Source: a candidate division SR1 bacterium (lineage in GTDB: Bacteria > Patescibacteriota > Gracilibacteria > Absconditabacterales > Absconditicoccaceae). Taken from it: DNA of 64,000 nt. Positions within the stretch are counted from its first letter, which is position 1. Each line of letters starts with the position of its first letter. This document shows positions 1,874 to 53,716 of the stretch, in pieces. The stretch is from the NCBI GenBank assembly GCA_026397395.1, contig JAPLUV010000023.1, forward strand, positions 23,810 through 87,809, in the 5' to 3' direction. The notes below the pieces were generated by a model. The model was not told the origin of the DNA, made no database searches, and saw nothing but the letters and a program-made list of their open reading frames with translations. The position numbers and the translations under genes were made by a program.

Positions 1874-1941
1874 GGTATTCTTGTATTTATGTTTGTTTTA
1901 TTTCAACAATGGTATACGTATTTACAAAACAAAGTCAAGCT

Positions 1942-14938: not shown

Positions 14939-17900
14939 CTATTTTTTATCAAATACCCTCTTGAGCATGACCATCACTCGGCCCCTCAATTCTTTCTGAT
15001 TTGGCGTGGCAATCTTAGTCATAATACCCTCTGTTTTCAGAGCACTCAAATGATTGGTATAATACATCACTCCTCCATTATTCTTGGTTCCTCGAATAAG
15101 TCTGGAAAGAATGGTACCAAACTGAGCTCTATCAACTTCCACATTCGGATCAAAGGTATGTTTGACTCTCACGCCGTCACTTTCATATCACATCAGTCAT
15201 AATCTACAAGCTGCGATAGCATAATATTGAGTTTCCTTAGATAATGATTTCATATCAAGGAAATCACATTTTACTCATGTAGAGACATTTTTACCCATCA
15301 CATTGATGGCAAAGTTACTAATCATCTTAGCCATATCTTTTCTCAACAATGGACCATTCATATTTGCTCTTTGGATAGTAGGCATGGTAGTAATATTATA
15401 GCCATATGACCAAAGATATGCATTATTCAGTTCAAGAGAGAATAGAGATCCTACGATACTTCCTGGTTCTTTACCAGCCGCTCCATGCACAAGTGGCTTA
15501 GTATCGATCAAAGGACATGGACCACAAATTCTATCATAATAACTATCAGAACAATCCCTTTGAACTGGACAGGCATCTTTGAGAATAGCTGGTCAGCCAC
15601 TACCATGCGAAGAACTTGGTGGATTCTCTACTGGAGTATTATCTACGGGAGTTTGTGTTGGAATTTTGAAGTAAGAGAAATGATTAGTTACTATTTCATA
15701 GGTATAGAGCATATCAGATACCCTTGTTCCAGTAATATCATCTCGAGTAATTCCATCAGTGGAAACTTTTACATTTATAGTTTCACCAAGATCTGATCAC
15801 ATATATATTCTAACAGAAACTGGATTGGAGAAGAAAAGAGAAGTTCCTGTACATGCAGATCAGATTTTAAATGCTTTGAGTACTCCAGAGAATTGGTCTG
15901 TCATATCTTGCGGTGCAAGTAATTCATTAACCAAACAAGAAAGTCCAGTCGAGATTACCGTTGTATTAGGAGGAAGAACTGCTTCTATATTTGCACTACG
16001 GATGCTGATTTCTTGTGCTGGAGTCGTATAGTTACCATCTCACATATCAACGAAACTGGTAACGATAATTGCATTATCAGCTAAGTCTGGGAACAATGAA
16101 CTCGTGTCATCGATAGTTATAATTCCAGCATCATAGCTAAATCAGAATCTATTGTTTCTAATATGATTATCTGATCGTAACTCATTAGTGGAAAGGATAT
16201 TTAGACTATTAGAGAAGCCATTATTTTTTAAATCATTAGAGAAAATTCCGGCAATATCAATAGTTCCTGCATCTCACGAAGCTAAATAACCAACATCAAA
16301 GACATATACATTTCTTCCTCCTGATCCACAATTTGGCACTAATCAGATATCTGCATTCCAATCATCAAACCAAGAAACAAGTTCTTGTCTCCAGTCACTA
16401 ATAGGACCATCATCATCTACAACATAATCTATAAACCACTTTCCTACGCCAGATGAATCTCCATTATATCCTTCTCGATCATTCATCATCTCAGCAAAAC
16501 TGCTATATTCATCATAATTTCGAGCATACTGATCGAAGAAATCTTGATACGGTCAGGTACCACTATTGTACCATTCATCAAAACAAGGATCACCAAATCC
16601 TGGATATGTCGTACCAATTCTTTCCTCTGAATATTCTGTATCAGTTTGGATATCCATACCATCTACCTTATCATAGTAGATAATGTTGGAGTCCATATCC
16701 TGTGGTCAATTGTTTTGATATCATAAATGGAGAGTAAATGTGTTTCCATCTATATAATCAATCGTTCATGATAAGACAAGATCAGCAACCATATATTGAT
16801 TCCATCGACCTCGGAAATAATTATTCAAGTGATCCACAAAGTCACTATCCGATATATCAGTATTAAGATAGTTGTATGCTATATTTCATCATCGATTCAT
16901 AGGCAGTGATGTAAGACAAGATGGAATCTCATCGGCGAAACGATTATGATCCGCGATTAATTGATTCAACGAAGTAAGGGAACAGAAGATATCCAAGGAT
17001 CAAGCAATTTGGTTATTATTAATATACAATGACATAAGACTAGGAAGATCATTAAATGTATTTAATCCTATAGAAGCAATTTGATTATCATTAAGATACA
17101 AATAAGAGAGATTAGAAAGTCCTACAAATGCTCCACTCTTAACAGAGATAATGGTATTGTCTGAAAGATTTAATTCTTGCAAGTTAGATAGATCAGAAAA
17201 AATATAGTCCTCTAATGAGACAAGACTATTACTATCAAGACGCAAATTATAAAGATTAGATAGCCCTGCAAATGCTCCACTCTCAATAGAAGAGAGTCTA
17301 TTGTAGGAAAGATTTAATTGCTCTAAATTTGATAGATTAGAGAAGATATTGGCATCCAATGTAACAATCTGATTATTATAAAGATACAAATAATAGAGAT
17401 TCGAAAGTCATACAAATGTACCACTTCCAAGAGAAGTAATATTATTGTATGAAAGGTCCAATTCTTCTAAACTGGAAAGATCTGCAAAGGTAGTATCTTC
17501 CAATGAAGTAATTTGATTATTATCAAGATACAGATAAGAGAGATCAGAGAGCCCAGCGAAAGTACCACTTTCGATAGAAACAATATGATTATCATTCAGA
17601 TACAATTCTTCTAGACTAGGAATATTTGCAAAAGTATTATTTTGGAGCGCTGTGATAGTATTCTCATCAAGATACAGATAATAGAGATATGGAATGTCAA
17701 CAAATGCACCGTTTGCAATAGAGACTATCTGATTATGACTAAGATACAATCCTCCTAGACTAGGGAGATTAACAAATGTTCAACTCTCGATAGATGTAAT
17801 CTGATTATAATTAAGATACAAATCAGAGAGATTTAAAAGTCATGAAAATGTTCCACCTTCGATAGAAGTAATATTGTTATACCTAAGATCTACATAAGAC

Positions 17901-20900
17901 AATGAATTAAGATTACTTATTTGTACAGGAAGAGCCCCAGATAGATTATTCTCATCAAGAGACAGATCATATACATGTCATTCACCCTCTCCACAACCTA
18001 CACCATACCAATCACAGGCAGTTGTAAGTGAAGTATCTCAATTTCATAACCAATTACTATTATCATACCAATTATCACCATCTGTACTAGTATACAAAGC
18101 AACAAGTGCTTCACACTCTGGCACAGGAATATCAGTCACAAGTTGTTCACAATATTTATCTATACTAGAAATATATCCGATAGTTTTGGTGATAGTTCTC
18201 TGACTAGCTCCTGTCGTATATACGACACGAAAAGTTTTGACTCCATATCCAGAACTAAAAGGAACATCTAAGGTTGTGAGATTTGATATAGTTCCTGTGA
18301 GAGGAGATCCTTCGAAGTCACCAGACAGTTCATAGTTTACCAGGTTAGCCGTGACGAGTTGAATCTGTATTCCTGTATTTGTGGTATATGATTGATGTGG
18401 AATAAGTACCAAAGATCAATTAAGCAATGGATTAACCTGGGCTATATATTTGTCTGTATCAAAAGATACATCTGACCAAACATACGCAGGAGTCCCCTCT
18501 CAGGTATCCTGGAGAACAGCGCTTTGTTTACTCACATGCATACCATAAAGATATTTGGTGGGAGTAGCTACGGACCAAGAATAGTTTTTTCATTTTTGAT
18601 CACAGTTAGGATAATTACTCTCATCAACAAGGAATATTTCATTTGCATTCATAGGATTGGTAATCCAATCACAGGACATGATACCTTCGGTATCCAAGAC
18701 TCATCACGACAAGAAATCAGTTGCTTCTCATGCACTAATAGAACCATTGATGTCACTATTGTTAGCGAACACCTTCGTTGTTCAGTAATATGTATTAGAC
18801 CAAGAATTTCGATTAATGGTAGCTCCATTATTATTATCATACAAATTAACTCCATCAAAAACATTATTACTGGCATTGTAGATATTAACTCAATATTCAT
18901 TATTATAAAGACTAGAGTTGTGTATCGTATTATTATTGGAAGAATATTGTATATAGAGTCCATAACCATTATTATATGCTTGAGTATTATTTATTACGTT
19001 ATTACTGGAATAATACAAAATCATACCATAATTATTATTATAGGTTTGGATATTATTGAGGACATTATTGGTTGATCAATCAAGGTGAAAACCCTCATTA
19101 TTGTTATAACTCTGGATATCTGTAAAGATATTACTGTTGGAGTTTGATAAAGAGGCTCAATAATTATCATTATTATACAACTGAGCGTCACTAATCTCGT
19201 TATTATTGGAATAACTCTCCAAAACTAATCCATAAGAACTATCATGTGATTGAACATTATGGATGGTATTGTTACTAGCATCATCAGATAATTGGATACC
19301 AGCATAATTTCTATAATGAGAGTTTCCATCACCAAATCATCTTCCATCTATTTTGATAGTATCTACAATTGCATTCGTCACTTGATAGAAAAATACTATT
19401 CTATTGAAGTATCAGTTTGAATATAATGTCACATCACCACTTCCTACAAGGGCCGAACAATGTGCAGGATAGATATAGTCCGAAGTAATAAGATAATTTC
19501 AAGAACTTAAAACATAGACAGTATTTTCAGATAAGTGATTAGGAATGGTATCCGTTCATGGTTCTATATATGCTACTGTCATATCAGCAGGATTACAGGT
19601 ATTTTGGGCTCGCTGTGTTGTATAGGTAGAACCAGACCCAAAGTACGTAAAAGGAAGTCAATTAGGATCGACATAATTAATATGTTTATTAATCGTTCTT
19701 GTTTTATCTCCCGTACTATATACTACGGAAATATTTTTTGTTCCATATCATGAAGTGAAAGCAATATCTATTGTTGTTGTGCCAGTCACAACACCCATCA
19801 GAGGGGATCCTTCGAAGTCACCAAAAAGTTCATAGTTTGCAGGAGTTGCTACGGTCATTTGAAGTTGAATACCTGTAGCTAATGTAGACGATTGTCCTCA
19901 TGCCAGAGTAAGAGATCCATTGAGTAATGGGCTTATCTCTGCAATATACTTTGCCACATCCCAAGACAAAGATGTCAAAGAAAAAGCAGAAGTATAGATG
20001 GTTCATGCATCGCCAATAGCTTGGAGTTGTTTGTTTATAGATAGTCCATACAGATAAGAGATATCAGAAGCTCAGATTCGAAAATTTTGTATTCATCTAG
20101 CATCACAGTTTGGATGTTCTGTTTCATCTATGAGAAATGATCCGTCAATATCCATTGGATTCGTAATTCGATTACATGACATACTTTCTGTATTTTCTTG
20201 CAACAATCATCCAGAGAAAAATTCAGAATCATCTCCAGCAGAAAGTTGTTCATTAACATTGATATTTATAGTATTGTCAAAGACTTTTATCGTTCAATAA
20301 TACTTGGCATTTGGAGATCCATTGGGATAGCTGTAAATTCACTCATAGTTATTATAGAATTGACTATTTACAATAGTAGTATAAAAAGAATAGGTAAAAC
20401 TAAGTCAATCACCAGCATTATTATACAGCTGACTATTGTTTATAGTCGTATTGGATCAGTGATACAAATCAATTCATTCATTATTGTTATAGCTTTGACT
20501 ATTATTGATAGTATTATTGTAAGCAGATTGAATATATATTCACCTGTCATTATTATACGATTGGGCATTGTTTAAGATATTATTAGAAGAGTCATAGAGA
20601 TATATTCCATATGCTCCATTTTTATATGTTTGGACAGTATTAATTAGAGAATGACTAGTATTCTCTAAAGAGATTCCATAACCATTCCCAAACGACTGAA
20701 CATTATTAATCGTAATATATGAGGAAGCACCCAAATAGACACCATGGTAAGCATGATGATAGGATTGAATATGAGTAATTGTACTACTGGAAGAACTATC
20801 TACACGGACTCCATTATAATTTTGACTATGAGTATTCCCAAGTCCATCATGACCTCAATCTATAGCGACATTATCTATAATAATATTTTCTTTTCCATAT

Positions 20901-23900
20901 AACCAAAAGGTTGCTTGATAAGGAGCACTTTCCATATATAAGGTAACATTTCCGCTTCCAACGATAGCCGAACAATTTTCTGGTCGTATACTATCAGTAG
21001 TAATATGCACTCATGAGAGTAAGACATAGATAGTATTGCCGGTAAGTGTTTCTGGAAGTGTATTTGTTCATGCATCTATATATTCCACATTCATCAGAGC
21101 TGGTTCACAGGTATTTTCTAATCGATGAGTAGTGTAGGTAGATCCAGATCAGAAATACGTAAATGGTAATCCATTGGGGTCAGTATACACAATACTCTTG
21201 TTAAACGTTTTACTTTGGTCTCCTGTAGTATAGGTAACAGAGAAATGTTTAGTCCCATATCCTGGAGTGAAAGTCATATTAAGTGCCATAACAGAAGCCA
21301 ATGCTCCTGACCTAGGAGATCATACAAAGTCACCAGACAATTCGTAGTCTACAAATTCAGATGAATGTAATGCTATCTGGGTACCTGTATTAAATGTATA
21401 TATTTGATCTGGTCACACAAACGAAAGAGATCCATTGAGTAACGGATTAATCTTGCCTATATAGCTAGCTGGATCAAAAGATATCTCTGACCACGAATAC
21501 ACAGGTTCTCCGCTTCCCACGTCTTGGAGTGCTTGTGTTTGTGTATTTATAGACATTCCATAGAGGTAAGTAATACCAGATGTTGCTGTCCACTGACTAT
21601 TTCTTCATCTCAAATCACAGCTAGGATAATTAGTTTCATTTATAAGATAGATTCAATTAGCATTTTTGGGATTAGTAACCAAATCACAGGAAATAGTTCA
21701 TCTCGTATCCACAACTCATCATGACAAGAATTCTGATGCCAATCATTCAGTAATAGTGTCTCCTACGAAATTATACGCATTATCAAATACCTTGAATGTT
21801 CCATAATAGCTATTATCAGATGATGAATTCAGATAGATGCCATAGCCATCATTATACAGCTGAGTGGTATTAAATCTATTACCAGTAGAGTTAGCTTCCA
21901 AATACACTCCATATACATCATTGTATGCTAAGAAATTATTCATCGTATTATTATTTGAACCATACATATGGAGTCCATTCTGATTATTATAGACTTGGGT
22001 ATTGTTGATCGTATTATTATTTGAAGATGATTGGAGATAAATTCCGTCGTATCAGTTATTATATGATTGGATATTATTGAGAATGTTATTATTAGAACTA
22101 TCCAAGAAGATTCCATAGGTATCGGAATACGCTTGAATATTTTCAAAGACATTACTATCACAATAATTAGTGAGATAAAGTCAGTCATAATTGCGATAGA
22201 CCTGGGTATTGGTAACGATATTGCCTGTAGCATAATTAGAGAGGTGAATACCATAATCAGTATCATAGACTTGAGTAGTATCGATAGTATTGTTTGAAGA
22301 TCCATCTATATAAATTCCTTGACTAGTTTTATGTACTTGTGTGCCATAAACAGTATTATCAGTAGAATGGTTAGTAAACACGATTCCATAACTATTTGGA
22401 TAATGAGTACTTCATTGTCCAGCATTTTGACCATCCAACGAAATTCCATCAATAATAATATTTTTCTTTCCATTAGCTGACAGCATAGCATTTACATCAG
22501 CAAAAGAATGTAACGATGAATAGCCACTTCCTACGATAGCCGTACAATCAGATAGACTTTTGGTAGTAGAATAAGAAATATGAGCTCAAGAAAGCAAGAC
22601 ATACATCGTATTGGCAGCCAAAGTATTTGGCAAGGTAGACCAAGTTTGCGTAGTCTCATAGCTATCTACATATACGACATCCATAGTCGTTGGATCACAG
22701 GTATTAGTAGTTCGATTGGTAGTATACTTTGATCCTGATCCATAGTAGACAAATGGCAATCCAGCAGGATCGGCATATTTGATTGTTTTGGTAATTATTC
22801 TTGTCCTATCTCCTGTACTACAGCTAAGACTTACATTTTTTATCCCATATCATGGCGTAAGAGTGATATCAGAAGCAAGGGTATCTTCTAACACTCCCGT
22901 GATAGGAGATCAGACAAAATCACCTATAACTTCGCAGTCTACAGGTTCAGTAGTCGTTGCTTCAGCGTGGATATCAGGATCGGTAGTTCATCAGTTTCCA
23001 TCATTCAAGACAAGAGATATATCAATCAGTTTATTTATTTCGGCTGCATATGCTCCTTTAATCCAAGATAATGCTGAGAATGAATAATCAAAAACACCTG
23101 CTCCGTTATCTTGGAGCGGCTCGACTTGTTTAGGAATATGTGTCCCATAAAGATACTTTATATTATATCAGCTTCGAGTATTAATATTTCATCTCTGATC
23201 ACATCTATCTGTAGTCATAAGAAAGTTTCCATCAGCATTCATAGGATTAGTAACTCGATCACAAGTAATTCAACCAATTATGCTTGATTGATTTCATCAC
23301 GAAAAAGTTTCTGTATCTACTCAAATAGTAAGATAAAGTGTGTTGTCATTATTGCCAAATATCTTTAGGTCTCCATAATAGGTATTATTTTCTGCATTTG
23401 TATCTATTGCATGCTGATTATTATAGACTCAAATATTGTTGAGCACATTGTTTGCAGAGTTATTCATCTCTATTCCATAGGTGTTATTATAGATTTGAGT
23501 ATTATTGATCGTATTATGATTAGAGTTAGAATTCATAAAGACAATTCCATAATAACTATTGAAAGTTTGGGTATTGTTGATGGCATTATTAGCTGAATTA
23601 AATAAGTAAATTCCTGCGTCACTATTGTTATACGATAAAGAATTATTGATTACCATATTGTGAGTTTCAGAAGCTATGATACCATATTGGTTATTATATG
23701 CTTGGACAGCATCTATCATAGTAGCATGAGTATCAACCAGATTAATTCAATTTGTATCATTATAGAATGTACTATCACTAACTTTCGTATTAAATGCATG
23801 CCAGATATCCACTCATTGCGACTGGTCATGAAATTTACTATTAGTAATCGTGTTGTTATCAGAATTTTCTACGAAAACACCACGATACGTATTATTGTAG

Positions 23901-24703
23901 ATAGTCACATCATTAATAGTGTTGTTATTGGAATGATTTTGTAACAAAATTCCGTTATAATTTTTCCATTCATTTGGATGCATACTACCATTCCCATCAT
24001 ACCATCCATCTATGGAAATATGATCGATGATAATATTTTCCTTAGCACTTGCGGCTAACATACCACCTAACCGACCAACATCAGAATAGATGGTCACATC
24101 ACCACTTCCTATGATAGCTGAACAGGTAGCCATATTTATTTGACTCCAAACGATATGAGTTCATGAAAGCAAGACATAGATAGTATTTTCTGATAAAGTT
24201 TGAGGAATGACAGATCATGGTCGTATATACTCCACTGTCATCGCACCAGTAGAACAAACATTACCAGTTCGATTAGCCGTATATGAAGAACTTAGCCCAT
24301 AATAATGGTCAATTATATCAACATCTGTAGTATCATACATACAATTCCCATCATCCATAGTTGCTGATACATCATAATTAATCGCTGCAGGATCAGTACA
24401 ACCATAGATATCTCCACCTCATTGTCCAGGATCTCAATTATCCTCAGGAACAGTTCCATCACAAGACACATTACAATATCATGGTTGTCCATTGTTTTCT
24501 CCATTATCACAGACTTCTATTCACTGAACTATACCATCGCCACAATATCCATCATCAGCGAAAGTTCCTCAATGAGTGAGGATACTAAAAAATCCAATAA
24601 GCAGGACAAACATCTTAACGACAGCAAATCCTGCAAACAATCAGCCCACATATTTTTTGTGGTGTTGCTTGAGATGAGCATGGATAGCGTGATGAAATTT
24701 CAT
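14939..24703 (-). CDS. Giant modular cell-surface protein (beta-helix, LRR, SLH-like)
   Basis: About 3254 residues in one uninterrupted frame once UGA is glycine. The N-terminus has a positively charged start and one membrane segment (about 20-45), then a Cys-rich CGDGIVQGIEVCDNG motif of the kind seen in myxobacterial surface proteins. Four modules of about 500 residues follow (about 130-2180). Each has a right-handed parallel beta-helix with N/T-rich repeats (NNTINNTQIYNNTYGI), a cysteine-containing link and an Ig-like domain (YELSGDFEGSPLTG). Then come an LRR domain (about 2190-2600, NLEQLNLSYNRLSSIESGAF), a long unique region, a Pro/Ser linker and a C-terminal part (about 3060-3254) with SLH-like VDRAQFGTILSRLI. 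It is likely exported and held at the surface for adhesion to a host cell or carbohydrate; that role is inferred. Confidence 0.85.
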
Positions 24704-41297: not shown

Positions 41298-41326
41298 ATG
41301 ACATTATTACTTGAAAATGATATACT
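41298..41326 (+). promoter_or_regulatory. Promoter upstream of the first GHMP/winged-helix gene
   Basis: ATGACA (-35), 17-nt spacer, TATACT (-10). It lies inside the longer possible reading frame that starts at 41298, so translation should begin downstream, at the ATG at 41385. Confidence 0.55.
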
Positions 41327-41384
41327 TTTGTCTACAACAATAGATGTATTCCTACCTATGTATTTTAGTTTTTTACAGCGTGTA

Positions 41385-43187
41385 ATGAACTCTAAGCAAC
41401 TCAAGGAACGTTTTAAAAAAACTTATGAATCTTTTTTCCAGAAAAATCAAATCGTAATATCCGCGCCATTTTTGATGAATCGAGCATGAGATATCTCCAA
41501 AGAATATAGTGGCATAACCATCAAACAAAAGATACCACTCCGCTTATATATAGGAATCAGCAAGAGCAATACCAAAAAGATACTAATCAATGATATTTCT
41601 TATTATGACAAAACACAAGATGAATTCATCACGACTAATGCATTGGAATATGCACCACACTTTTACAATCTCAACGATCACATAAATAGTGAACGGAAAG
41701 CTATTTTGGATATCTATGATGGCATCAATATAGATATATTTTCTGAACTACCAAGATGAATGGGGCTTTGATTTGAATCTATATTAGCATTTTTGCTAGC
41801 CACAGGACTCAATAGATTAGTAAACAAAATAGATCATTCTACCATAGATGATATAAACAATCTCACCATCGAAGACGCTCTCAAAAGAGAAGATCAAACC
41901 GTCAGCAATTGGCTGAAAGATGGGATTATTTTTGATAAAATTGTTTTTGGCACGATCATCTCCTCTGTCAAAAGATCATCTCTTTTTGAATCATACTACC
42001 CTATCATCAGCATTATCAAAGACCAAGAAAAACAAGATGAGAATGTACTTATTTCACTAAATAAATCATATACATTCAGATTCAATGAGTTGTTTGAATG
42101 ATGGAAAAAGATACCATATCTTCCTATCGATTATGGAATCATTTATTCTGGAAAACCTGTATTATTGGAACAAATCGTTACCTGTAACAAAAAAAATGGA
42201 TCATATAATGATGCCATCAAACCAGAATTCAAAAATATTTTTTGAAAGTATTTTGATAATTTAAAAGATGCGGAAATACCTAAATTTTATAAAGATCTAA
42301 TCGATACCGACAACAACAAGATAGAGAGTTCGCTCTATGGTAAAGTAATGGGAATGCTTAGCATTAAGATATTTCACCTTATGATTCAATTATACTCTCG
42401 TGAATACAATGAAGAAATAGTCAAAGAATTTATATGAGCACTCAATAAATTTAGACGATGAAATTATGTGACCAAAAACAGCTCTAATTTTTTTATGGAC
42501 ATCGTCAGAAAGCTTACTGAGGAATTCAAAGCAAACCACAGTTTATTTTGACTCTTTCCAAATGATACGACCATTATGGGTGGAACAATTTGATTCGCTT
42601 TGCCATTAGAATGATTTAGAAAAAACTTTTTGAATGCAGTCGAAGAGACCAAAAAAGAATTTAATGGAACAGATCTTATTTACTGCAGTTGGACGGATGG
42701 AATCGAACACAAATGACTATATTTCGAGCAAGATATAGAAAAAAATATTTATTCAGAATTTATTGATTCCAGAAAGCACATACTCAAATCTAGTGACGGG
42801 CAATGCTTTCTGTGAGACTACGAAGAATTATTAGAGAAGCAGATCCATAATATTGTTTTGGATTGCATCAATGACAAGATATTTGTAAATGGGAAAAAAG
42901 TAACTTCGGATAGTCTTCATTCCCAGAGTGCAACCATAGGGATATTAAAAATATTGATTGAAAACATTGGGAAAGAAGTTCACAACAAGGAACTACCAGC
43001 ATCATGATATTGTAAGAACAAAAATGAGATGACAGGAAAGATTATTCTTCCTCTGATCAAATTGATCGAAAAAGAAATAGGAAAAAAGATACCACTCATC
43101 TGTAAATGATCTATCTATGAATTTTATATTAAGCTCAATCATTCAGACATCACTATAGCTATTATAGACAGAATCAACGACAACTAA
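41385..43187 (+). CDS. GHMP-kinase-like protein with C-terminal winged-helix-like domain, copy 1
   Basis: A 600-residue protein with many UGA glycines. The N-terminal half looks like a GHMP kinase: VISAPFLMNRAGDISKEYSG matches motif 1, and LPRGMGLGFESILAFLLATG matches the Gly-rich ATP loop. YLPIDYGIIYSGKPV follows. The C-terminal 100 residues (INDKIFVNGKKVTSDSL, then NKNEMTGKIILPLIKLIEKE and CKGSIYEFYIKL) have the pattern of an OmpR-type winged helix. Start at 41385 is chosen from the promoter position and alignment with copy 2. It could be a metabolite-sensing regulator or an enzyme with a nucleic-acid-binding tail; both are inferences. Confidence 0.6.
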
Positions 43188-43722: not shown

Positions 43723-43783
43723 TTTTTGCAGTTAGTTCTTTATTCTGTTAGCAAGATAAGAACATATGGAGAATAGAATTCCC

Positions 43784-45529
43784 ATGAATACCAAGTCGCT
43801 ACAAAATCAATTTAGAAACGATTACGAAGAATTTTTTGCAAAGAATGACTTAATCATAAGTGGATGCTTCACTGGTGCTTTAGCTCCTACTTGAATTGGA
43901 CATGTATCCAGATTTATGCGTATCAAGTTCAAGTTACCGATAAAAATGTATCTATGAATAAATGGGAATCAAAACTGAAACATATGCTTCAGTAATTTTT
44001 TCATATACAATATTACAGCACATAATTTTGAGAACAAAGAGCTTCGCGATATGGTGGATGGCGAAACATCCAAAATCATAGAATACATAAAAAGTTTTTT
44101 GAAAGAAAACAAGAAAGAGCAAGGAATCGATATAAATGTTCTTGCAGAATGAGGCAGGCGGTATTCTTTTTCTTTTTCAGCAACATTCACAGCAGTACTA
44201 GCTACAGCACTTTATCTATTTGTTGGGAAAATTAGCTCCAAAGACTTGGAAAATTATGAAGAATTTATGAAATCAGATATTTTTCGCGAGATAGAAATCA
44301 CAGCACGAGAAATGTCATTGTTGACAAGATATGGCAACGCGTCAGGAGGCATGCATGTATTATACAAGTCATATACACCAGGACTCTTTTATTGTGAAGC
44401 TTTTGAGAACAACATTAACATAGAAGAAGTTAAAGGGCTCCATCGCTCATTTACTCCATTTTCTACATTGTTTGACGTAGAAGAACACAACTATCTTCCT
44501 TTTGATTATGCAATAATTTATTCTGGATCACAGAGGACATATGAAAAGATTGAACAAGGGATCCAATTAGACAAAAAAAAATTTCAAAAATACCAAGAAT
44601 TTATAGAAAAGAGCGTTCTTCCCATTACCCAACTAGCCAAGGATATTCGCTTTATAGAGATTTTGAAAAATGGCATATATAACCAATTTGTAGATATGTT
44701 CTCTTTATCTACAGTTATGATTTTGGAGAGTTTAGAAAAAATCTATACCGAAGGAGAAGATATTAATAACATAGATCATCTAATTGATACTGTAAATAGA
44801 GTGAGATATCTTTTTTATATGTTAGAAAAGAAACCATCTGAGTTTATTGAGAAATTTTCTTCATCCTTTGAAGAGACATCTCACAACAAAGAAAAAATAG
44901 GTATCGTGAATAGTTATTCTAGTAAAATTGGAGACAACTGTATGGTAATAATGAAAGATGGGACTAATAAAAAGCATTTCTTCGAAGCTATAGAAAAACT
45001 AAAATCTGAATATCCAGATGTAGAAGTACCGTACGCTTCACGAATAGACGGGATCTCTAACGATGGGATTAAAATAGAACAACATATTTCAGAGAAAAAA
45101 TTTTCTTCTTATATACAAAAAGATAAAGTATTCTGCAAAAATAACCAAGGAGAAAGTTTCCTAGGAAATTATCATGAAATCATTAATTCTCACAAAGAAT
45201 GATTATTATTAGATGGGATAGACAATAAAATCTATCTCAATGGTAAAAAATTAACATCAGTCAATCTTTGTTCTCAAAGTTCTACCATTAGCATTCTAGG
45301 AAAACTATTAGACAATATTGGCAAAGATGTAGGAAACAATGAATTGGAGGTATCTAGTTATAGCAAGAACAAGAACGAAATGCTAGGCAAGATTGTTATT
45401 CCGATTATCTCCCTTATTGAGAAGGAGACAGGTGCAAAACTCCCTTTGATATGTAAGTGAAGTATATATGATTTTTATATGAAACTTAATACAGACGATT
45501 TCAAAGTATTTATGGTCAAAAAAATATAA
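43784..45529 (+). CDS. GHMP-kinase-like protein with C-terminal winged-helix-like domain, copy 2
   Basis: A 581-residue paralog of the 41385 gene with the same layout. The N-terminal LIISGCFTGALAPTGIGHVS corresponds to motif 1. GGRRYSFSFSATFTAVLATA is the ATP-loop region and YLPFDYAIIYSGSQRTYEKI the later conserved strand. The tail (IDNKIYLNGKKLTSVNL, SSYSKNKNEMLGKIVIPI, LPLICKGSIYDFYMKL) is the more conserved part of the pair. ATG at 43784 has GGAG upstream and aligns with copy 1; ATG at 43766 is an alternative. The motif 1 Asn is replaced, so kinase activity may be lost. Confidence 0.6.
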
Positions 45530-45739: not shown

Positions 45740-47059
45740 ATGACCTACAATGTGTACAAAGAAGTTATAAAATCGAATGTAAATCCTGCAATGTGATGCA
45801 CAGAACCAATCTCTGTAGCATATGCAACCAGTGCGCTCAAGAAATACATTGATAATATATCAGATATAGAAAACTTAAACATCCAAGTAAATTGAGAATT
45901 ATATAAAAATGCGATTTGAGTATATATTCCAAATTCTCAATGAGAAAAATGATTAGAGATAGCAGCAGCATTAGGAATTATAGGAGGAAATTATGAAGGG
46001 AAACTAGAAGTTTTGAAAGACATAACAGCTTCTGATATAGAAAAAGCAAAAGAAATGGTAAAAAAAAGGATAGTTAACATAGCAATCAACAAGGAAGAAA
46101 AAGAGCTCTTTATAGAAGCAAATGCACATCTAAAAAACGGTGAGAATGTTAGCTCAACAATAAGGAACACTCATACCAATCTCATCAACATTATTTCAAG
46201 AGATAAAGAAATCCCCTTATACAATATCCAATATGATGAGACAGTAAATGATCAAAATTATTACGAAGAGATACTTAAAAATTCATCAATAAACGAATTA
46301 ATCGAGATGGCTAAAGCAATCGACGAGAATGATATTGAATATATTAAAAAATGAATAGAGATGAACTTAGCAATGGCAAATAAAGAGGTGGAATACAAAG
46401 GAGTGTGAGCATCTCTAGATGCTTTAACAAAAAAGTGATTATTAACAGATGACATAATAGGGAAAATAAAAATATTAACAACAAGAGCAACTGATGCAAG
46501 AATGTCATGAATAAATATGCCAGTAATGAGCAGTGGTGGAAGCTGAAATCAATGAATAATTTCCATACTAGTCCCCTATCTTTATGGGAAAAATGTACCT
46601 TTGGAGATAACTGGAGAATCCATTGACGAAAGGATTATATACGAAAGCATAGCCTTTTCTCATTTATTAAATTCTTATGTAAAATGTTTCACAGGAAAAT
46701 TATCTGCAATGTGTTGATGCGCTGTCGCAGCAGGGTTATGAGCTACTGGAGCGATTGCATACCAAAGAACCGATAGAAATATTGAAACGATTACCAATGC
46801 AATAAACAATTTAATATCTGACATTGCATGAATATTATGCGACTGAGCAAAGTTATGATGTGCGAACAAAATAAACACAGCCGTAGAATGTTCTATCGTA
46901 TCTGCGTTAAAAGCAATTGAATGATACCATGTAACTTCCAACGATTGAATTATAGGGAAAACAGCCGAAGAAAGCATAAAAAATCTATGAAAAATTACCA
47001 AAATAGGGATGAGTAAGATGAATAACTCAGTATTAACGATAATGGATGAAAAAATATAG
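45740..47059 (+). CDS. L-cysteine desulfidase-like protein (CyuA/UPF0597 family)
   Basis: A 439-residue protein with the family marks: VNPAMGCTEPISVAYATSAL near the start, VMSSGGSGNQGIISILVPY in the middle, MCGCAVAAGLGATGAIAY and GILCDGAKLGCANKINTA toward the end. The cysteines of GCTEP, CGC and GCA are the [4Fe-4S] ligands of this group. Members break L-cysteine to pyruvate, ammonia and sulfide, or act on related amino acids such as serine. More than 15 glycines are UGA, including inside these motifs. Its position before cysS suggests cysteine or sulfide supply for the pathway. Confidence 0.85.
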
Positions 47060-47093: not shown

Positions 47094-48617
47094 ATGCTCA
47101 TGCAAAAGACATCAGAAGTAATCACAGAGAATAAAAATCAAGAAAAAAAAGTGCAAAACTGAAGTTTGAAACTAAAGATATATAACACTCTATCAAATAG
47201 TATGGAAGATTTTGTTCCATTAGAACCAAATAAATTAAAAATGTATGCTTGTTGAATAACTGTGTATGATGAAGCCCATATTGGGCATGCCAGACAGGCA
47301 ATGTCTTTTGATATCATAAGAAATTATCTAAAATATTCATGATATGATGTTACCTATGTAAGAAATTACACAGATATTGATGATAAAATAATTAATAGGG
47401 CAATCAAAGAAGATAAAGAATGTTCATCAATATCAGAGTATTACATCAATGAATCTAAAAATGATCTTAAAAGAATAAAAGTAAATGAAGCAGATGTAGA
47501 ACCAAAAGTTACCGAGCACATACCAGAAATAATAAAGTATATAGAGACATTAATTACTAAAGGATATGGATATGTAAGTAACGGTGAGGTACTTTTTGAT
47601 GTTTTAAAAGTCGAAGACTACGGCAAACTTTCAAACAGAAAAGTGGAAGATTTAATATCCAACGAGAATAGTCCAAACAAAAGGAATCAGGTTGATTTTA
47701 GTTTACGAAAACCTGCAAAAGAAGGAGAGCCTTCGTGGGAGTCTCCTCGATGAAAAGGAAGACCAGGCTGGCATATAGAATGTTCAGTGTTAGCCAATAA
47801 ATATTTATGAGAAAGTATTGATATTCATGGATGATGATTAGATATCATGTTTCCTCACCATGAAAACGAAATTGCTCAAAGTGAAGCATTTTCGTGAAAA
47901 CAATTTTCTAAATATTGGGTTCATAATTGAATGGTAAACGTAAATGGACAAAAAATGGGAAAAAGCTTAGGAAACTTTCTAACAATAAAAGACGCTTTAA
48001 ACGACTACAACGCGGACATTATTCGCTACGTCATCCTATCATACAACTTAGCTACGCCAATGGATTTCAATCCTGAAATGTTCAAAATTGCGAGTAAGAG
48101 AGTCTATTATTTTTACAAATCATTAAATATGATTGACGACTTTTTATCGCAGAATAAAGATGTCGCATGAGGAAAGGATCAGCTCATTTGAGAACAAATT
48201 CATAATTTAGAAAGTGATTTTGTAAATGCTATGAATGAAAATTTTAACTTCCCAAAAGTATTGGGAGCTTTGTCGAATATATTTTCAGAAATGAACGAAT
48301 TAATGACTTCAAAGAAGATCCCAGATCAAGATAAGATATACACGCTAAGTAGTTTTAGAGAGAAACTAACCAAGATAACAGATGTTATAAGAATATTTGA
48401 TGATGACCCAAAAGAATATGTAGATTCCTATAAAAAAAACTTTTTAAAAGAAAAAAATATTGATGATGGATTTATAACTGAAAAAATCAATCAAAGGAAT
48501 CAAGCAAAAATCAAAAAGGAATATACAACAGCGGATCAGATAAGAGAAGAGTTAAAAGAGTTATGAATTGGATTGCAAGACAAAGGAGGAGAAACAGATC
48601 GAGACATAATAATTTAG
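47094..48617 (+). CDS. cysS: Cysteinyl-tRNA synthetase
   Basis: 507 residues. After an N-terminal extension of about 25 residues, it has [20 protein letters not shown] (zinc Cys and HIGH motif), [23 protein letters not shown] (zinc Cys and His residues) and the KMSKS equivalent [12 protein letters not shown]. The C-terminal helical domain is complete. It may be the only CysRS of the cell or an extra copy tied to the cluster. Related CysRS-like enzymes such as MshC join cysteine to amines. Full tRNA-binding domains favour a true synthetase. UGA glycines are frequent. Confidence 0.9.
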
Positions 48618-48732: not shown

Positions 48733-48831
48733 ATGGAAAATGAAATGAAAAAAGAGACAGAACAAGTAAACGAGTGGACGATGGATGTAGACGAATTCGA
48801 AAAGAATGGGTGTATGTGTAATGGAGACTAG
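48733..48831 (+). CDS. Putative RiPP precursor peptide
   Basis: A 32-residue peptide: a 25-residue acidic leader (MENEMKKETEQVNEWTMDVD, then EFEKN) followed by GCMCNGD with Cys27 and Cys29. A leader rich in Glu/Asp with a short Cys/Gly end is typical of peptides altered by radical SAM enzymes. Directly after it come a strong terminator, a PqqD-like leader-binding protein and two radical SAM/SPASM enzymes. The product would be a short peptide cross-linked or otherwise altered at its Cys or neighbouring residues; this is inferred. I know of no described family with this core. The frame is short, so the context carries the call. Confidence 0.6.
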   Translation: MENEMKKETEQVNEWTMDVDEFEKNGCMCNGD

Positions 48832-48838
48832 TTTAGAG

Positions 48839-48870
48839 AAGGCTAGTAATAATAGATACTAGCCTTTTTA
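48839..48870 (+). terminator. Strong terminator between precursor and enzyme genes
   Basis: AAGGCTAGTA pairs with TACTAGCCTT (10 bp) and T residues follow. Placed between peptide and enzymes, it would keep peptide mRNA in excess, a common arrangement in RiPP operons. Confidence 0.85.
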
Positions 48871-48889
48871 AAAGATGTAAACCAAAAAA

Positions 48890-49102
48890 ATGTATAAGCT
48901 ATCAAAAAGTATCTCATGGACAGAAAAGAAAGACATTATTGTTGTTTATCTGAACTACAATTACTACTTTTTTAGAAACAAGAGTAAAAATCGGATTAGA
49001 AAGATTTTAGAAAATAATAAAAACAATAGCCAAAAGGATATTCCAGCAGAATTTTATTCATATTTAATTCAAAAAAATATTCTAGAAGATGAAAGAAAGT
49101 AA
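48890..49102 (+). CDS. PqqD-like RiPP recognition element
   Basis: A 70-residue protein with the PqqD/RRE fold pattern: SKSISWTEKKDIIVVYL and NYNYYFFRNKSKNRIRKIL form the beta-strand and first helix. NIPAEFYSYLIQKNILEDE-type helices end the domain (residues about 50-68: DIPAEFYSYLIQKNILED). Such domains bind the leader of the precursor and present it to the radical SAM enzyme. It lies between the peptide and the first radical SAM gene, and its last five codons overlap that gene. No UGA is used. Confidence 0.7.
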   Translation: MYKLSKSISWTEKKDIIVVYLNYNYYFFRNKSKNRIRKILENNKNNSQKDIPAEFYSYLIQKNILEDERK

Positions 49103-50180
49103 TTGTATCAATTGATTTGAGTATAACGAGCTTTTTGATCTAGCGATTAAAAAGCCAGAATTTGCTCAGTTATATGTAACCAATAATTGTGTACAAAGCT
49201 GTACGTTTTGTTTTAATTGATGTAATATCAAAACAGGATTTATAGATTTAGATTTGGCTGATTGGAAGTATATTATAACTCAATTGGTAAAGATATGAGT
49301 AACAGGAGTAAACTTAAGTGGTTGAGAAGTTTTTTTATACAAAGATCTCAATGAGCTTATTTCTTTTATCAAAGATATTTGAATAAAAAGGATAATCATA
49401 AATACGACCTGATTGATTGATATAACTAAATATAAGTTTCAATATTTTGATGAAGTTGTTTTTTCCATCCATTGAACGAAAGATATTCATGATAAAATCA
49501 CAGGAAGAATATGAAATTACGAAAGACTGATGGAAACTCTTGAAAAATTCAAAAAAGCAAAAAAAGCGGAAACCATTATATGAATAAACTGTATAATCAC
49601 AGAGGAGAATATTGACCATATTGATACAATCTACCACAATCATCAAAAATTAGCTACTGATTATATCGCCTTCAATCTAGAGATTGATAAGCAAAAAATC
49701 CAGGATACAGACAAAAAACGCCACCAAACGATAGATTCGTATTTTAAATTTTTAAGAACTATACCGACAGATAAAATAAAATTTAGACATGGAATGAAAC
49801 ATCTAATAGGGAAAGGAATAGATAACTACGAAGAGAAGGTTCCGCTCCCCGATTGTGCCGCAGGAAAATTCAAACTAATAGTGAACTACAAATGATCTGT
49901 ATATCCATGTGTGTATTTCCAAAATAGTGAGTTTTACTGTTGAAACATACTAAAAGATGATATCCACAAAATATGGACAGATGGAGCCTGATTCAAAAAA
50001 TTTAGAGAGCTAATTTATAAGTGACCAGATAGAGGTTGCTCAGACTGCATAAAAAAACACAAATGTTATTCTTGATGTTTAGCATGGAGACTTTTAAACG
50101 ATAAAAAAACTCATGAAAAAGACATCCGCTGCGAAATTGGGGCTTCATTTATTGGAAATAGAGATAACGTCTCATTGTAA
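49089..50180 (+). CDS. Radical SAM/SPASM peptide-modifying enzyme 1
   Basis: A 363-residue enzyme. CVQSCTFC (Cys34, 38, 41) binds the [4Fe-4S] cluster that cuts S-adenosylmethionine. NLSGGEVFLY is the SAM-contact strand. A C-terminal SPASM domain follows: CAAGKFKLIVNYKGSVYPCV with CSDCIKKHKCYSGC, binding extra clusters. SPASM enzymes that accompany a PqqD domain form carbon-sulfur or carbon-carbon links in peptides. By my count about 14 of 26 glycines use UGA. It overlaps both neighbours, so translation is likely coupled. Confidence 0.88.
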
Positions 50181-51135
50181 TCTAGATTGTAAACACTGTT
50201 ACAATCGTGAAGAAAAAAAAGGAGATCTTCCCATCCAAAAGATTGAAGAATTACTTATTTTTGCAAAAGAGAATTGAGTTAGAACGGTTGTAATTTCTGG
50301 CGGAGAAGCAATGTTATATAAACAGTTTGACAAAGTAGTAGACCTCATAAAAAAAAATAAATGAGACTATCGCGTTGTATTACAAACCAACGGAACATAT
50401 ATAAATGAAATGAATCTAAATAAAATAAAGGCGTTTGATCTCATTCATCTTAGTTACGATTATAGCGATTCAATACGCAAAAGATGAGATGACAATCTCA
50501 AACGCGCAATGTTTTTGAAATCACATTGAATAAAATGTTATCTGTTCTCCAGTATTCATAAAAAAAACAAAAATCACATAGAAGATATGGTCAAAAATGC
50601 TAATGATTCAGGTATTCCGATAGCTTTCAATATTTGTATTCCCATGCATAGATTAACGGATCAAGATCTATTGGATGATAAAGAATTCTTCCAAGTAGAA
50701 TGACTTTTGTACAAACTATACCAAGCATGAAAGATATTACGCTATGGAAGCCCTTTAGTCGCTATACGTGATGAGACAAAAAAAATGGACTATGCAGGGA
50801 ACAAATGAGGATGTACAGCAGGAGTAGCAGCCTGTATAGTTAGCTTTTCTGGGAAAGTCTTTCCTTGTCCATTTCTAAGAATTGAGGCATGAAATATCTT
50901 CACACAAGATTTGAAAGATATCCGACTAAAATCAACTATTTTTAATACATTCAGACAAAGAGATAAGTTTGAAGGGAAATGTAAATGATGTCAGTTTCTT
51001 TCATATTGTGGATGATGTAGATGAAGAGCATATAAATCGACAGGAAAATTAAATGGTTCAGATCCCAAATGCTATAAAGATACCTTTTTACATAATAATC
51101 AGAATGTATGATGAAACAATGTGAAAACTGTTTAG
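50113..51135 (+). CDS. Radical SAM/SPASM peptide-modifying enzyme 2
   Basis: A 340-residue enzyme with CNLDCKHC (Cys22, 26, 29), VISGGEAMLY and, in the SPASM region, CTAGVAACIVSFSGKVFPCP with CKGCQFLSYCGGC. It starts 68 bp before the end of enzyme 1, in another frame. Two different radical SAM enzymes suggest two separate changes to the peptide or a change and a tailoring step. The start ATG at 50113 gives the expected spacing to the cluster motif. Confidence 0.86.
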
Positions 51136-52028
51136 CCCCAATAGAAAGCGATACTGGCACATCTGCCACGTGTGATGCGTGTATAGATATACAATGAGAC
51201 ATGTATCAATTACTTCAAAAGTCACCAATATTTGGAGAGGAAATGGATGCTTTTCTCAAAGAGAGAAAAAAAGTTCTTTTTGCTTATTCTTGATGACTTG
51301 ATAGTACTGTTGTATTACACAAATTAAATCAGGAATGTAAAAACCGCCTTATTCAACTATTTTGTTTCACTGTCGATCATGGCTACAAGTGAAATCAAGC
51401 ATATAAAAACATAGATAATATAATAAAATTTGAAGAACTCGAGAATCAACACACCTGGATAGATATTAAGAACAAACAATCTGGAGAGAAAGAGAATATC
51501 AAATTATACAGTGAATGTATTCAACAAAACATGTTACCTTGTGGACCTACATGTAACAAGATTATAGACAGTAACTATAGGCGTATTATGGACCTTTATA
51601 ATGAAGATACACTCATCACCGGCTGAGATACTCCAAAGTTTAACAAAAGACTAGGGAGATATTCTATTTTACGAGAAAAGCCAGAATTTACGGTATTAAG
51701 AGGAGGTTTAGCATTTTGAATGGACAAGGAATCTAATAAAAATTACCTTAACGATAATCAGATCCCACGAGAGAACCCTTGATGTGGATGATATGATACT
51801 GACTGTCTGATTCCCTGAACCGTACTAAGAAACTTGGTCGAAAAACAAAACTATTCATATAATGATATATGCAAAGATCTTCCACAAATCATATGATATT
51901 TATCGGAAAGAGTAAGACGATGAATAATAGATAAAGAAGATGCTCTAGATAAAATAGAACATCTGGACATAGCAAATGATTCGAGTTATCATGAAGCAAT
52001 GAAAATAGCACATTCAGATGGCAAATAG
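51111..52028 (+). CDS. Zinc-ribbon PP-loop ATPase (TtuA/Ncs6-like)
   Basis: A 305-residue protein. An N-terminal zinc ribbon (CENC and CDAC) precedes the PP-loop VLFAYSGGLDSTVVLHKL, then CFTVDHGYKG, LPCGPTCNKII and TLITGGDTPKF. This order resembles the TtuA/TtcA/Ncs6 group, which activates a substrate with ATP and adds sulfur. N-acetyl-sugar amidotransferases share part of it. In this setting it might place sulfur on the peptide or prepare a thiolated building block; inferred only. It overlaps the preceding gene by 25 bp. Confidence 0.7.
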
Positions 52029-52049
52029 ATTTATCTATAATAGCAAGAG

Positions 52050-52961
52050 ATGATAATCGACTCCCATTGTCATATATGAGAATATAAAGATACGAAGAAA
52101 GCGTATAGCTATGTTTCGAATACCCAAGATTTAATAAATATACTAAATACTCACTGAGTTCAAAAAGCGATTTGTTCGCCTGAACCACATTGAGGATTGA
52201 GTTTCGATGAAAATAATACTTCTCACGAAGAAACAGCTGCTATTAATAATATTCCATATGGGCAAGATAATATCAGTCTATTAAAGCTGAAGAAAGCTTA
52301 TGATATTAGCAATATTTTGCTACCATTCCGAATTATAGATACAAGGAAGAAAATAAAAGAGCAGATAAAATTAGCTGAACAGCAATTAAAGAAAGATCCT
52401 CTTTATGGAGTAAAGTTTCATTGCCAAACCTTAGATGTAAATATAGCTGATATAGACAATCCCACCATTATGCCGTTTCTAAAAGATGCCAAACTACCTG
52501 TCTTACTACATACTTGAATTCGTAAAGACAAATGGCTAGCTAGCCACGTTTTGGATGCCGTTGAAAAACATGCAGAAATAAATTTTAGTATAGCCCACAT
52601 GGGAAGATTCGAAAAAAAGTTTTGGGATAGATACGACAAAAACTGAATGCCATGAAACCTGTTTATCGACACATCACCTTTCTATGCAATATGTAATTTA
52701 TCAGCATCTTACAAGGACAAGGAGAGATTGGAAAGGATACTAGATATAAATTACAAAAATACAGAAGATTGCTTCAAGATGTTTGTGGAAAAATACAAAG
52801 AAAATCTAATGCGAGGAAGTGATTATCCATATATATCTTATCCAGAGTATCAATGATCTTATAAGGAGAATATTGATTTACTCAACACATTAGATGAAGA
52901 AACTAAATGAAAAATTAGCTATAGAAATACTCTAAAATTTTTATGAAATAATATCGTATAA
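52050..52961 (+). CDS. Amidohydrolase-family metal-dependent hydrolase
   Basis: 303 residues with the TIM-barrel metal pattern: MIIDSHCHIGEY (His-x-His) at the start, GVKFHCQT, VLLHTGI and FSIAHMG for the later His ligands, and RGSDYPYISYPE with the catalytic Asp. Members cleave amide or C-C/C-N bonds in small molecules. A role as a peptidase or in trimming the modified peptide is possible. UGA glycines occur in EY-flanking and HTG motifs. It fits tightly between PP-loop and acetyltransferase genes. Confidence 0.8.
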
Positions 52962-53492
52962 ATGGGAAATTCTATCCACAAAGCAAAAGCAACTTCCTAT
53001 AACAAGATTAAAAATGCGACAGAAGAAGATGCCGAACAAATAAGTAATATTCGTGTAAAAGCACGAAAAGAATGATATAAAGGGATAATATCAGAAAAAT
53101 ATCTCGATACTTTAACATCTTCTACCGAACGCATACAAAGTTACAAAAACATCATAAGAATGAATGCTAATATTTTTCTAGTAAGTGAAAGAGATGGCCT
53201 AATAAAATGATTTATTTATGGTTGAGAACCTCGTGATAGAGATGAGATAAGCTCAAAAGAAGTATATGCATTTTATGTAAATCCAGAATGTCAAAGAGAA
53301 TGAATATGATCTCAATTATTCAATGAGTTCTGTAAAAAAATAAGACCAAGAGATGTATATTTACGAACATTATCATGAAGTAAATGAGATGCATTTTATC
53401 AAAAACGATGAGGAATAGCATCAGGGACCAAAAAAATTGAAATTTGAGGAGATATATACAAGGAAATAAAATATGTATTTAAAACAGATTAA
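52962..53492 (+). CDS. GNAT-family acetyltransferase
   Basis: A 176-residue protein starting one base after the amidohydrolase stop. NATEEDAEQISNIRVKARKE is the first strand and helix, VYAFYVNPECQREGIGSQLF carries the acetyl-CoA loop (Q/R-x-x-G-x-G), with both glycines UGA in REGIGS, and DVYLRTLSGSKGDAFYQKRG follows. It would acetylate an amine, perhaps the product for self-protection or maturation. Last gene before the double terminator, so the end of the operon. Confidence 0.85.
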
Positions 53493-53656: not shown

Positions 53657-53687
53657 TAGATAAGCAAAAAAGATGAATAAACTCATG

Positions 53688-53716
53688 CTTCTGGAAGAAC
53701 TTCAGAAGTTTTTTTA
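53688..53716 (+). terminator. Operon terminator 2
   Basis: CTTCTG pairs with CAGAAG around a 9-nt loop, then seven T residues. Confidence 0.75.

What the first reader, a model, noticed from the sequence alone, without database searches (positions are those of the whole stretch)
48733..53492. Putative RiPP operon with an unfamiliar GCMCNGD precursor
Seen: a 32-residue frame ending GCMCNGD, a 10-bp-stem terminator, a 70-residue PqqD-like protein, two radical SAM/SPASM enzymes, a zinc-ribbon PP-loop ATPase, an amidohydrolase and a GNAT, all on one strand, mostly overlapping or nearly abutting, and closed by two terminators. Known: PqqD-like domains bind leaders of radical-SAM-modified peptides, and terminators often separate precursor from enzymes. 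Inferred: the peptide is the substrate and its Cys/Met/Asn residues are changed. A RiPP pathway in a UGA-glycine CPR bacterium would be new to me. The PP-loop ATPase and amidohydrolase go beyond the usual minimal set.
Basis: partly seen in the sequence, partly recalled or inferred. Interest (0 to 1): 0.92.

Follow-up and report, generated by a model that had tools for sequence, protein, structure and literature searches.

The report
Mycofactocin-like peptide pathway in Gracilibacteria
A tiny bacterium that reads the stop codon UGA as glycine carries a gene set that very probably makes a short peptide and rebuilds its cysteine-containing tail with radical enzymes, and two related genomes carry the same kind of peptide in front of the same kind of enzymes, so this looks like an undescribed branch of modified-peptide chemistry.

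Summary
The features described are present. Under code 25 the order is a 32-aa frame ending GCMCNGD, a strong terminator hairpin, a 70-aa protein, two intact radical SAM/SPASM enzymes, a zinc-ribbon PP-loop ATPase, an amidohydrolase and a GNAT.

In 353 genomes of the class this exact cassette was not found again. However, two related genomes (G010, same genus; G046, same family) have multi-radical-SAM operons with a short acidic frame directly upstream ending FSGCGD, and its last 14 residues are identical despite silent changes. Only 4 of 2,061 short frames scanned share the tail pattern, and three of them are these. The G010 enzyme is nearest to mycofactocin MftC, and MftA ends DGMCGVY; the order precursor, small RRE-like protein, radical SAM enzyme is that of MftA-B-C. 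Nearest solved structures are SkfB, PqqE and SuiB.

The 70-aa protein matches no PqqD/RRE model. Its predicted fold is RRE-like, but sequence tests are marginal or negative.

The acquired block also holds a cysteine desulfidase and a second cysteinyl-tRNA synthetase just upstream.

RiPPs as such are already reported from CPR bacteria. Verdict: new variant of a known kind; chemistry inferred only.

The parts
45740..47059 (+). L-cysteine desulfidase (CyuA-type), probable part of the acquired block; would release sulfide from cysteine
   Evidence: PF03313 153 bits; 32% identity over the full length to E. coli CyuA, none to L-serine deaminase TdcG; absent from the 48 other genomes of the family
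47094..48617 (+). second cysteinyl-tRNA synthetase (CysRS2), 34 nt after cyuA and 115 nt before the precursor frame
   Evidence: TIGR00435 505.6 bits, over cut-off; the genome has another CysRS on contig C9 (36% identity), relatives have only that type; long branch outside the Gracilibacteria CysRS clade
48733..48831 (+). putative precursor peptide MENEMKKETEQVNEWTMDVDEFEKNGCMCNGD (32 aa; a later ATG at 48745 is possible)
   Evidence: codon score rank 2 of 191; tail pattern shared with the frames of G010 and G046 and with MftA
48839..48866 (+). intrinsic-terminator hairpin between precursor and enzymes
   Evidence: 10-bp stem, z = -5.2; the G046 relative has a terminator at the same place
48890..49102 (+). 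70-aa putative stand-alone RRE (PqqD/MftB-type leader-binding protein)
   Evidence: AF2 model beta-beta-beta-alpha-alpha, pLDDT 77; Foldseek: no significant match, but 8 of the top 50 are RRE-bearing chains; no Pfam/NCBIfam match; sequence tests marginal or negative
49089..50180 (+). radical SAM/SPASM enzyme 1 (overlaps the 70-aa gene by 14 nt)
   Evidence: PF04055 68.7 and PF13186 40.9 bits; nearest solved structures SkfB and PqqE; CVQSCTFC and full SPASM cysteines
50113..51135 (+). radical SAM/SPASM enzyme 2
   Evidence: PF04055 73.4 and PF13186 30.4 bits; nearest solved structures SuiB and SkfB; best class-wide match is the G010 enzyme that follows a GCGD peptide
51108..52028 (+). PP-loop ATPase with N-terminal 4-Cys ribbon and a CxxxC...C set; putative sulfur- (or nitrogen-) inserting enzyme
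   Evidence: PF01171 over cut-off; weak LarE, TilS and WbuX matches; cysteines conserved with the PP-loop enzyme of the G010 cluster
52050..52961 (+). Amidohydro_2-family hydrolase; putative release or trimming step
   Evidence: PF04909 35.5 bits; only class relative is in G116, about 32% identity
52962..53492 (+). GNAT acetyltransferase; putative product-capping or self-protection enzyme
   Evidence: PF13508 37.6 bits
53687..53709 (+). terminator closing the operon
   Evidence: neighbouring weaker hairpin

Best explanation
This is a radical-SAM RiPP operon with mycofactocin-like logic. Shown by sequence: a short acidic peptide with a GC...GD tail, a terminator, a small protein with an RRE-like predicted fold, two complete radical SAM/SPASM enzymes, a PP-loop ATPase, a hydrolase and a GNAT. 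Inferred: the terminator lets the peptide be made in excess over the enzymes. The 70-aa protein holds the acidic leader and presents the C-terminal NGCMCNGD core to the SPASM enzymes. These abstract a hydrogen and make a bond, most simply a thioether between a core Cys and the terminal Asp (ranthipeptide-type), since C and D are the conserved reactive residues. The PP-loop enzyme then adenylates a carboxyl or amide and inserts sulfur (LarE/TtuA-like), with sulfide from the neighbouring cysteine desulfidase. The amidohydrolase frees or trims the product and the GNAT caps it. The second CysRS may protect the cell or secure cysteine charging. Confidence given is for the RiPP reading (peptide is the substrate of these enzymes); the thioether and the sulfur insertion are each well below one half.
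For: Frame looks coding. Precursor-like frames sit directly upstream of multi-radical-SAM operons in G010 and G046; the last 14 residues (YYEAESRQFSGCGD) are identical with 5 silent nucleotide changes, and G046 has a terminator at the same place. Tail pattern in 4 of 2,061 frames scanned, three of them these. The maturase of the G010 cluster is nearest to MftC, and two MftA peptides end DGMCGVY, in mftA-B-C order. N-terminal domains of the relatives' maturases group with MftB in a leave-one-out test. Nearest solved structures of both enzymes are peptide maturases: SkfB, PqqE, SuiB. A PP-loop enzyme with the same cysteine pattern sits in the G010 operon. RRE-like predicted fold. Precedents: Cys-Asp thioethers by PapB at separations 0-6 (PMC9413430); [4Fe-4S] LarE with Cys92/Cys96/Cys172 (PMC9283937).
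Against: No orthologous cassette was found, so the window's own precursor is not tested by orthologue conservation; the tail match to G010/G046 needs a 3-residue gap. The 70-aa protein fails PqqD/RRE models, and one of three sequence tests is clearly negative. HMM scores of the enzymes to any named RiPP subfamily are far below cut-off, and the best for enzyme 2 is a heme synthase. No dedicated exporter or leader peptidase in the cassette. The order of steps and all chemistry are inference.
Confidence: 0.72

Rival explanations
1. The 32-aa frame is a regulatory leader peptide. Ribosome stalling at its Cys codons (UGU AUG UGU) when Cys-tRNA is scarce would prevent the downstream terminator from forming and switch on the enzymes; the neighbouring CysRS and cysteine desulfidase would then mark a cysteine-responsive system.
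For: Cys codons lie just upstream of the stop and the terminator; length is in the range of known leader peptides (own knowledge); an 8-pair alternative hairpin overlapping the stop codon exists; cysteine genes are adjacent. Polycysteine leader ORFs are a cited precedent (reference in PMC13236596).
Against: The alternative hairpin is not stronger than chance: p = 0.07 against dinucleotide shuffles and 0.71 against synonymous recoding. It folds at -6.7 against about -20 kcal/mol for the terminator region. The GC-GD tail and acidic leader recur in front of radical SAM operons whose peptides have only one Cys in the tail. Nothing here excludes that the frame does both jobs.
Confidence: 0.13
2. 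The radical SAM enzymes act on a small molecule or cofactor (NirJ/AhbD-like tetrapyrrole chemistry, or a sugar or natural product together with the amidotransferase-like PP-loop enzyme); the short frame and 70-aa protein are unrelated.
For: Enzyme 2 scores highest with AhbD, TIGR04053 and NirJ2; the PP-loop enzyme has weak WbuX sugar-amidotransferase similarity; the window's right flank holds polysaccharide genes.
Against: The nearest solved structures are peptide maturases, and the only plasmid match of enzyme 1 is PqqE. No tetrapyrrole genes were seen in the block. Related operons have conserved GC-GD peptides in front.
Confidence: 0.1
3. Pearlin-like scaffold: the peptide is a reusable carrier to which cysteine from Cys-tRNA (supplied by the second CysRS) is added and then rebuilt and clipped off.
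For: A second CysRS lies directly upstream; in 3-thiaglutamate biosynthesis cysteine from Cys-tRNA is appended to a 50-aa scaffold peptide (PMC9016710).
Against: No PEARL (LanB-like) ligase in the block; the core already contains Cys; the genomes of the related clusters, G010 and G046, have no second CysRS.
Confidence: 0.04

Closest known systems
Mycofactocin pathway (MftA-MftB-MftC, MftE release)
   Same: Short acidic precursor (31-53 aa) whose last residues are the core, with a glycine-cysteine tail; order precursor, small RRE protein, radical SAM/SPASM maturase; a dedicated hydrolase; MftC is the nearest plasmid-borne relative of the G010 maturase (PMC7491314).
   Different: Tail ends in Asp, not Val-Tyr; two radical SAM enzymes; neither reaches the MftC model cut-off (77.6 and 73.2 of 265 bits); hydrolase from another family; PP-loop enzyme and GNAT instead of MftD and MftF.
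PQQ biosynthesis (PqqA-PqqD-PqqE)
   Same: Stand-alone RRE gene overlapping the radical SAM/SPASM gene; enzyme 1 is most similar to PqqE by model and plasmid match and second after SkfB among solved structures.
   Different: No PqqB/C/F; precursor without the Glu/Tyr core; 82.6 of 381 bits to the PqqE model.
Ranthipeptides (freyrasin PapA/PapB)
   Same: SPASM enzymes acting on closely spaced Cys and Asp; PapB joins Cys to Asp across 0-6 residues (PMC9413430), which fits CNGD and CGD tails.
   Different: No repeated CX3D motifs; PapB model 46.9 of 340 bits for enzyme 1; linkage not shown.
LarE / TtuA [4Fe-4S] PP-loop sulfur insertases
   Same: SGGxDS plus a CxxxC...C set with the spacing of LarE Cys92/Cys96, and a 4-Cys N-terminal ribbon as in the WbuX-like enzyme of G010 (PMC9283937).
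   Different: 21 of 150 bits to LarE and 21 of 203 to WbuX; substrate would be a peptide; Fe-S cluster not shown; AF2 model unusable.
CPR graspetide clusters
   Same: RiPP clusters in CPR bacteria (PMC8939145).
   Different: ATP-grasp chemistry, not radical SAM.

Membership tests
RiPP pathway (general) | Genetically encoded precursor peptide next to modifying enzymes | tested here: met
   Frame at 48733-48831 with coding-like codon use, directly upstream of two SPASM enzymes; equivalent frames in two relatives
RiPP pathway (general) | The peptide is modified by the enzymes | not testable with these tools
   Needs co-expression and mass spectrometry
RRE / PqqD / MftB family (48890 protein) | Match to PqqD/RRE sequence models | tested here: not met
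   No PF05402 or NCBIfam PqqD/MftB match; PF05402 finds nothing in the whole genome
RRE / PqqD / MftB family (48890 protein) | Winged-helix fold: three strands then helices | tested here: inconclusive
   Predicted b-b-b-a-a at pLDDT 77; Foldseek non-significant but enriched in RRE chains (TbiB1, ThcOx, LynD); profile tests: reached by 1 of 60 shuffles, 188 of 200, 136 of 3,000
Radical SAM/SPASM enzymes | CxxxCxxC plus full SPASM cysteine motif | tested here: met
   Both enzymes
Mycofactocin | MftA ending in Val-Tyr core | tested here: not met
   Tail is NGCMCNGD
Mycofactocin | MftC above TIGR03962 cut-off (265 bits) | tested here: not met
   77.6 and 73.2 bits
Mycofactocin | Order precursor, small RRE, radical SAM | tested here: inconclusive
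   Same order, but RRE identity of the middle gene is unproven
PQQ | PqqA with Glu/Tyr core and PqqE above cut-off | tested here: not met
   No such core; 82.6 of 381 bits
Ranthipeptide | Cys to Asp/Asn/Thr non-alpha thioether | not testable with these tools
   Motif spacing allows it (PMC9413430)
[4Fe-4S] PP-loop sulfur insertase | SGGxDS and CxxC/CxxxC plus distant Cys | tested here: met
   SGGLDS, C145-x3-C149, C226 or C233
[4Fe-4S] PP-loop sulfur insertase | Model cut-off of LarE or WbuX | tested here: not met
   21.1 bits each
Pearlin | PEARL (LanB-like) ligase | tested here: not met
   None among the block's genes
Cysteine-responsive attenuator | Antiterminator stronger than chance | tested here: not met
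   p = 0.07 and 0.71

The most novel reading that the evidence does not exclude
The block makes a cysteine-derived, sulfur-enriched peptide product of a new 'GC-GD' class, carried by Gracilibacteria, that acts on cysteinyl-tRNA synthetase of competing or host cells. The second, divergent CysRS would be the maker's immunity copy, the cysteine desulfidase its sulfide source, and the Cys codons of the core might also sense Cys-tRNA.
Probability: 0.1. Interest if true: 0.88.

Novelty: new variant of a known kind. Interest (0 to 1): 0.72.

Why it matters
CPR bacteria have very small genomes and are thought to live on other bacteria, yet this one spends about nine genes on what looks like a peptide-derived metabolite. 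A recurring GC-GD peptide in front of MftC-like maturases in two other Gracilibacteria genomes, one with a glycosyltransferase and a carbamoyltransferase, points to an undescribed branch of radical-SAM RiPPs near mycofactocin. It is testable at once by recoded co-expression. A second CysRS and a sulfide-releasing enzyme in the same acquired block give concrete guesses about sulfur source and target.

Tried and rejected
Scans for the cassette outside the class: viral contigs with four protein or alignment queries and a core DNA pattern, phage and plasmid records, genome contigs with the amidohydrolase alignment (only G116/UBA6164 returned). AF2 of the PP-loop protein failed (pLDDT 38) and was not used. 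PqqD/RRE profile tests of the 70-aa protein: one weakly positive, one negative, one marginal; one search timed out. Attenuation by leader peptide: tested, not supported. Resistance-type substitutions in CysRS2: ten positions differ from 36 relatives, but CysRS proteins of other organisms in the PDB alignments carry some of the same residues, so I do not use this as evidence of immunity. Rfam: no match. CysK-like gene 53843: present elsewhere in G008 and G009 without the cassette, so left out of the block.
Full report
OBSERVATION. The genes are there under code 25. Order and coordinates: 32-aa frame 48733-48831; hairpin with arms 48839-48848 and 48857-48866 (z = -5.2); 70-aa frame 48890-49102; radical SAM/SPASM enzymes 49089-50180 and 50113-51135; PP-loop ATPase 51108-52028; amidohydrolase 52050-52961; GNAT 52962-53492; terminator 53687-53709. 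The SAM motifs and SPASM cysteines are complete in both enzymes. The five larger enzyme genes use TGA for 46-64% of their glycines, against 16-54% in neighbours, so they are well adapted to this code and not a recent arrival from a standard-code host. The 32-aa frame has the second-best codon score of 191 frames of like length.

DISTRIBUTION. The cassette is rare. Enzyme 1 has no close relative in 48 other genomes of the order. The PP-loop protein has none in the other genomes of the class (353 searched) or in those drawn from the phylum (380 searched). Enzyme 2 has one distant match in the class (G010, 27%). The amidohydrolase has one (G116, about 32%). So conservation of the window's own peptide in orthologous cassettes could not be tested.

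RELATED CLUSTERS. The distant matches led to two related loci: G010 (same genus; contigs C47 and C120, loci L018/L019) and G046 (same family; L020). Both are multi-radical-SAM operons. G046: a 210-aa protein with an HExxH motif, two SPASM enzymes with an N-terminal RRE-like domain (one fused to a methyltransferase), two further radical SAM proteins, an AstE/AspA-type hydrolase. G010: a fused HExxH-RRE-SAM protein, a SAM enzyme apparently split between the two contigs, a further RRE-SAM enzyme, a WbuX-like PP-loop enzyme, a glycosyltransferase, an AstE/AspA hydrolase, a carbamoyltransferase, a C39 peptidase and a GNAT. The corresponding main enzymes are 48% and 44% identical between G010 and G046.

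PRECURSORS. Directly upstream of each operon lies a short acidic frame: G010 MEEKDVQIKDVAEKEVKSNTADEYYEAESRQFSGCGD; G046 MEEKLLNNEKVCEVKEKEDQEIVKDYYEAESRQFSGCGD, read from an inner ATG. The last 14 residues are identical while the DNA differs at 5 silent positions; the leader has drifted. That is what a RiPP core and leader look like. G046 has a terminator (AGGAGGC GAAA GCCTCC T6) right after the peptide, as in the window. The window frame shares the ME-rich acidic start and the GC...GD end (NGCMCNGD). Among 2,061 ATG frames of 20-80 aa in 273 kb, four match the tail pattern: these three and one antisense chance frame. The pattern was framed after seeing the relatives, so the rate is a guide, not a strict test.

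MYCOFACTOCIN LINK. The best plasmid matches of the G010 maturase are annotated MftC, and in one record the match reaches into MftB. Two MftA peptides fetched there are 34 and 53 aa, acidic, and end DGMCGVY. So peptide tail, gene order and enzyme kinship all point to a mycofactocin-like scheme. It is not mycofactocin: no Val-Tyr core, no MftC-level score, different downstream enzymes.

THE 70-AA PROTEIN. No PqqD or RRE model is hit. AF2 without an alignment gives b-b-b-a-a at pLDDT 77. Foldseek has no significant match (best E 0.8), but 8 of the 50 listed are RRE-bearing chains: TbiB1, ThcOx and LynD (that these carry RREs is own knowledge). A profile test against the relatives' RRE domains gave a score that 1 of 60 shuffles and 3 of 106 other segments reached; with MftB and PqqD added the test was negative; an ungapped profile placed it in the expected register at p about 0.045, well below true members, while MftB and the relatives' domains recognised each other clearly. 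I call it a probable but unproven RRE. Position (between peptide and enzyme, overlapping the enzyme as pqqD overlaps pqqE) supports it.

PP-LOOP ENZYME. SGGLDS, a 4-Cys ribbon and C145-x3-C149 plus C226/C233 recall [4Fe-4S] sulfur insertases; LarE of Thermotoga uses Cys92, Cys96 and Cys172 and is proposed to pass on sulfide bound to its cluster (PMC9283937). C149 and C233 align with cysteines of the G010 enzyme. Inference: it activates a carboxyl or amide of the peptide and inserts sulfur; nitrogen is the alternative.

WIDER BLOCK. Immediately upstream are a cysteine desulfidase (32% to E. coli CyuA, no similarity to L-serine deaminase) found in no other of 49 family genomes, and a second CysRS. 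The housekeeping CysRS is on contig C9; genus relatives have only that type. CysRS2 falls with standard-code lineages on a long branch; it is best read as acquired. In G009 homologues of the genes that flank this region (41298, and the CysK-like 53843) stand close together, with only a small frame and a NUDIX gene between them (homology of 41298 judged by eye), so the stretch from 43766 to the cassette looks like variable or inserted DNA. Whether cyuA, cysS2 and the cassette act together is inference. A 115-nt gap with a weak hairpin separates cysS2 from the peptide, so separate transcription is possible.

MECHANISM AND RIVALS. See the fields above. The attenuator rival was tested and is not supported, though the frame could still do both. 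The small-molecule rival is weakened by the nearest solved structures (SkfB, PqqE, SuiB) and by the recurrent peptides.

NOVELTY. RiPPs in CPR are known (PMC8939145, PMC12153355). A GC-GD-tailed, mycofactocin-like radical SAM family in Gracilibacteria was not found in NCBIfam or in the paper library. I rate it a new variant of a known kind.

Noticed in passing
window 47094-48617: Second, divergent cysteinyl-tRNA synthetase (KMGKS instead of KMSKS) in a genome that already has one; no other genome examined in the genus has this type.
   Followed up: partly
window 45740-47059: CyuA-type L-cysteine desulfidase, the only one in 49 genomes of the family.
   Followed up: partly
L018 2534-2647 (-), L020 7354-7509 (-): Conserved short peptides ending YYEAESRQFSGCGD in front of multi-radical-SAM operons of two other Gracilibacteria genomes.
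   Followed up: yes
L019 2000-6779: The G010 cluster also has a glycosyltransferase, an AstE/AspA hydrolase and a carbamoyltransferase, suggesting a heavily decorated product; it probably continues contig C47 (L018).
   Followed up: partly
L018 about 1900-2509 (-), L020 6678-7310 (-): Unnamed 200-aa protein with an HExxH zinc-protease-like motif next to the GCGD peptides, without a significant Pfam or NCBIfam match; possible leader peptidase.
   Followed up: no
L024 5217-9989 (G116, UBA6164): Different cluster: radical SAM protein, a protein that looks like S-adenosylmethionine decarboxylase, GNAT and the only class relative of the window's amidohydrolase.
   Followed up: partly
window 41298-43187 and 43766-45529: Two related proteins of 629 and 587 aa with no Pfam or NCBIfam match; a relative sits near the CysK-like gene in G009.
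   Followed up: no
window 14939-24703 (-): Open frame of 3,254 aa on the minus strand, a giant, possibly surface-exposed protein.
   Followed up: no
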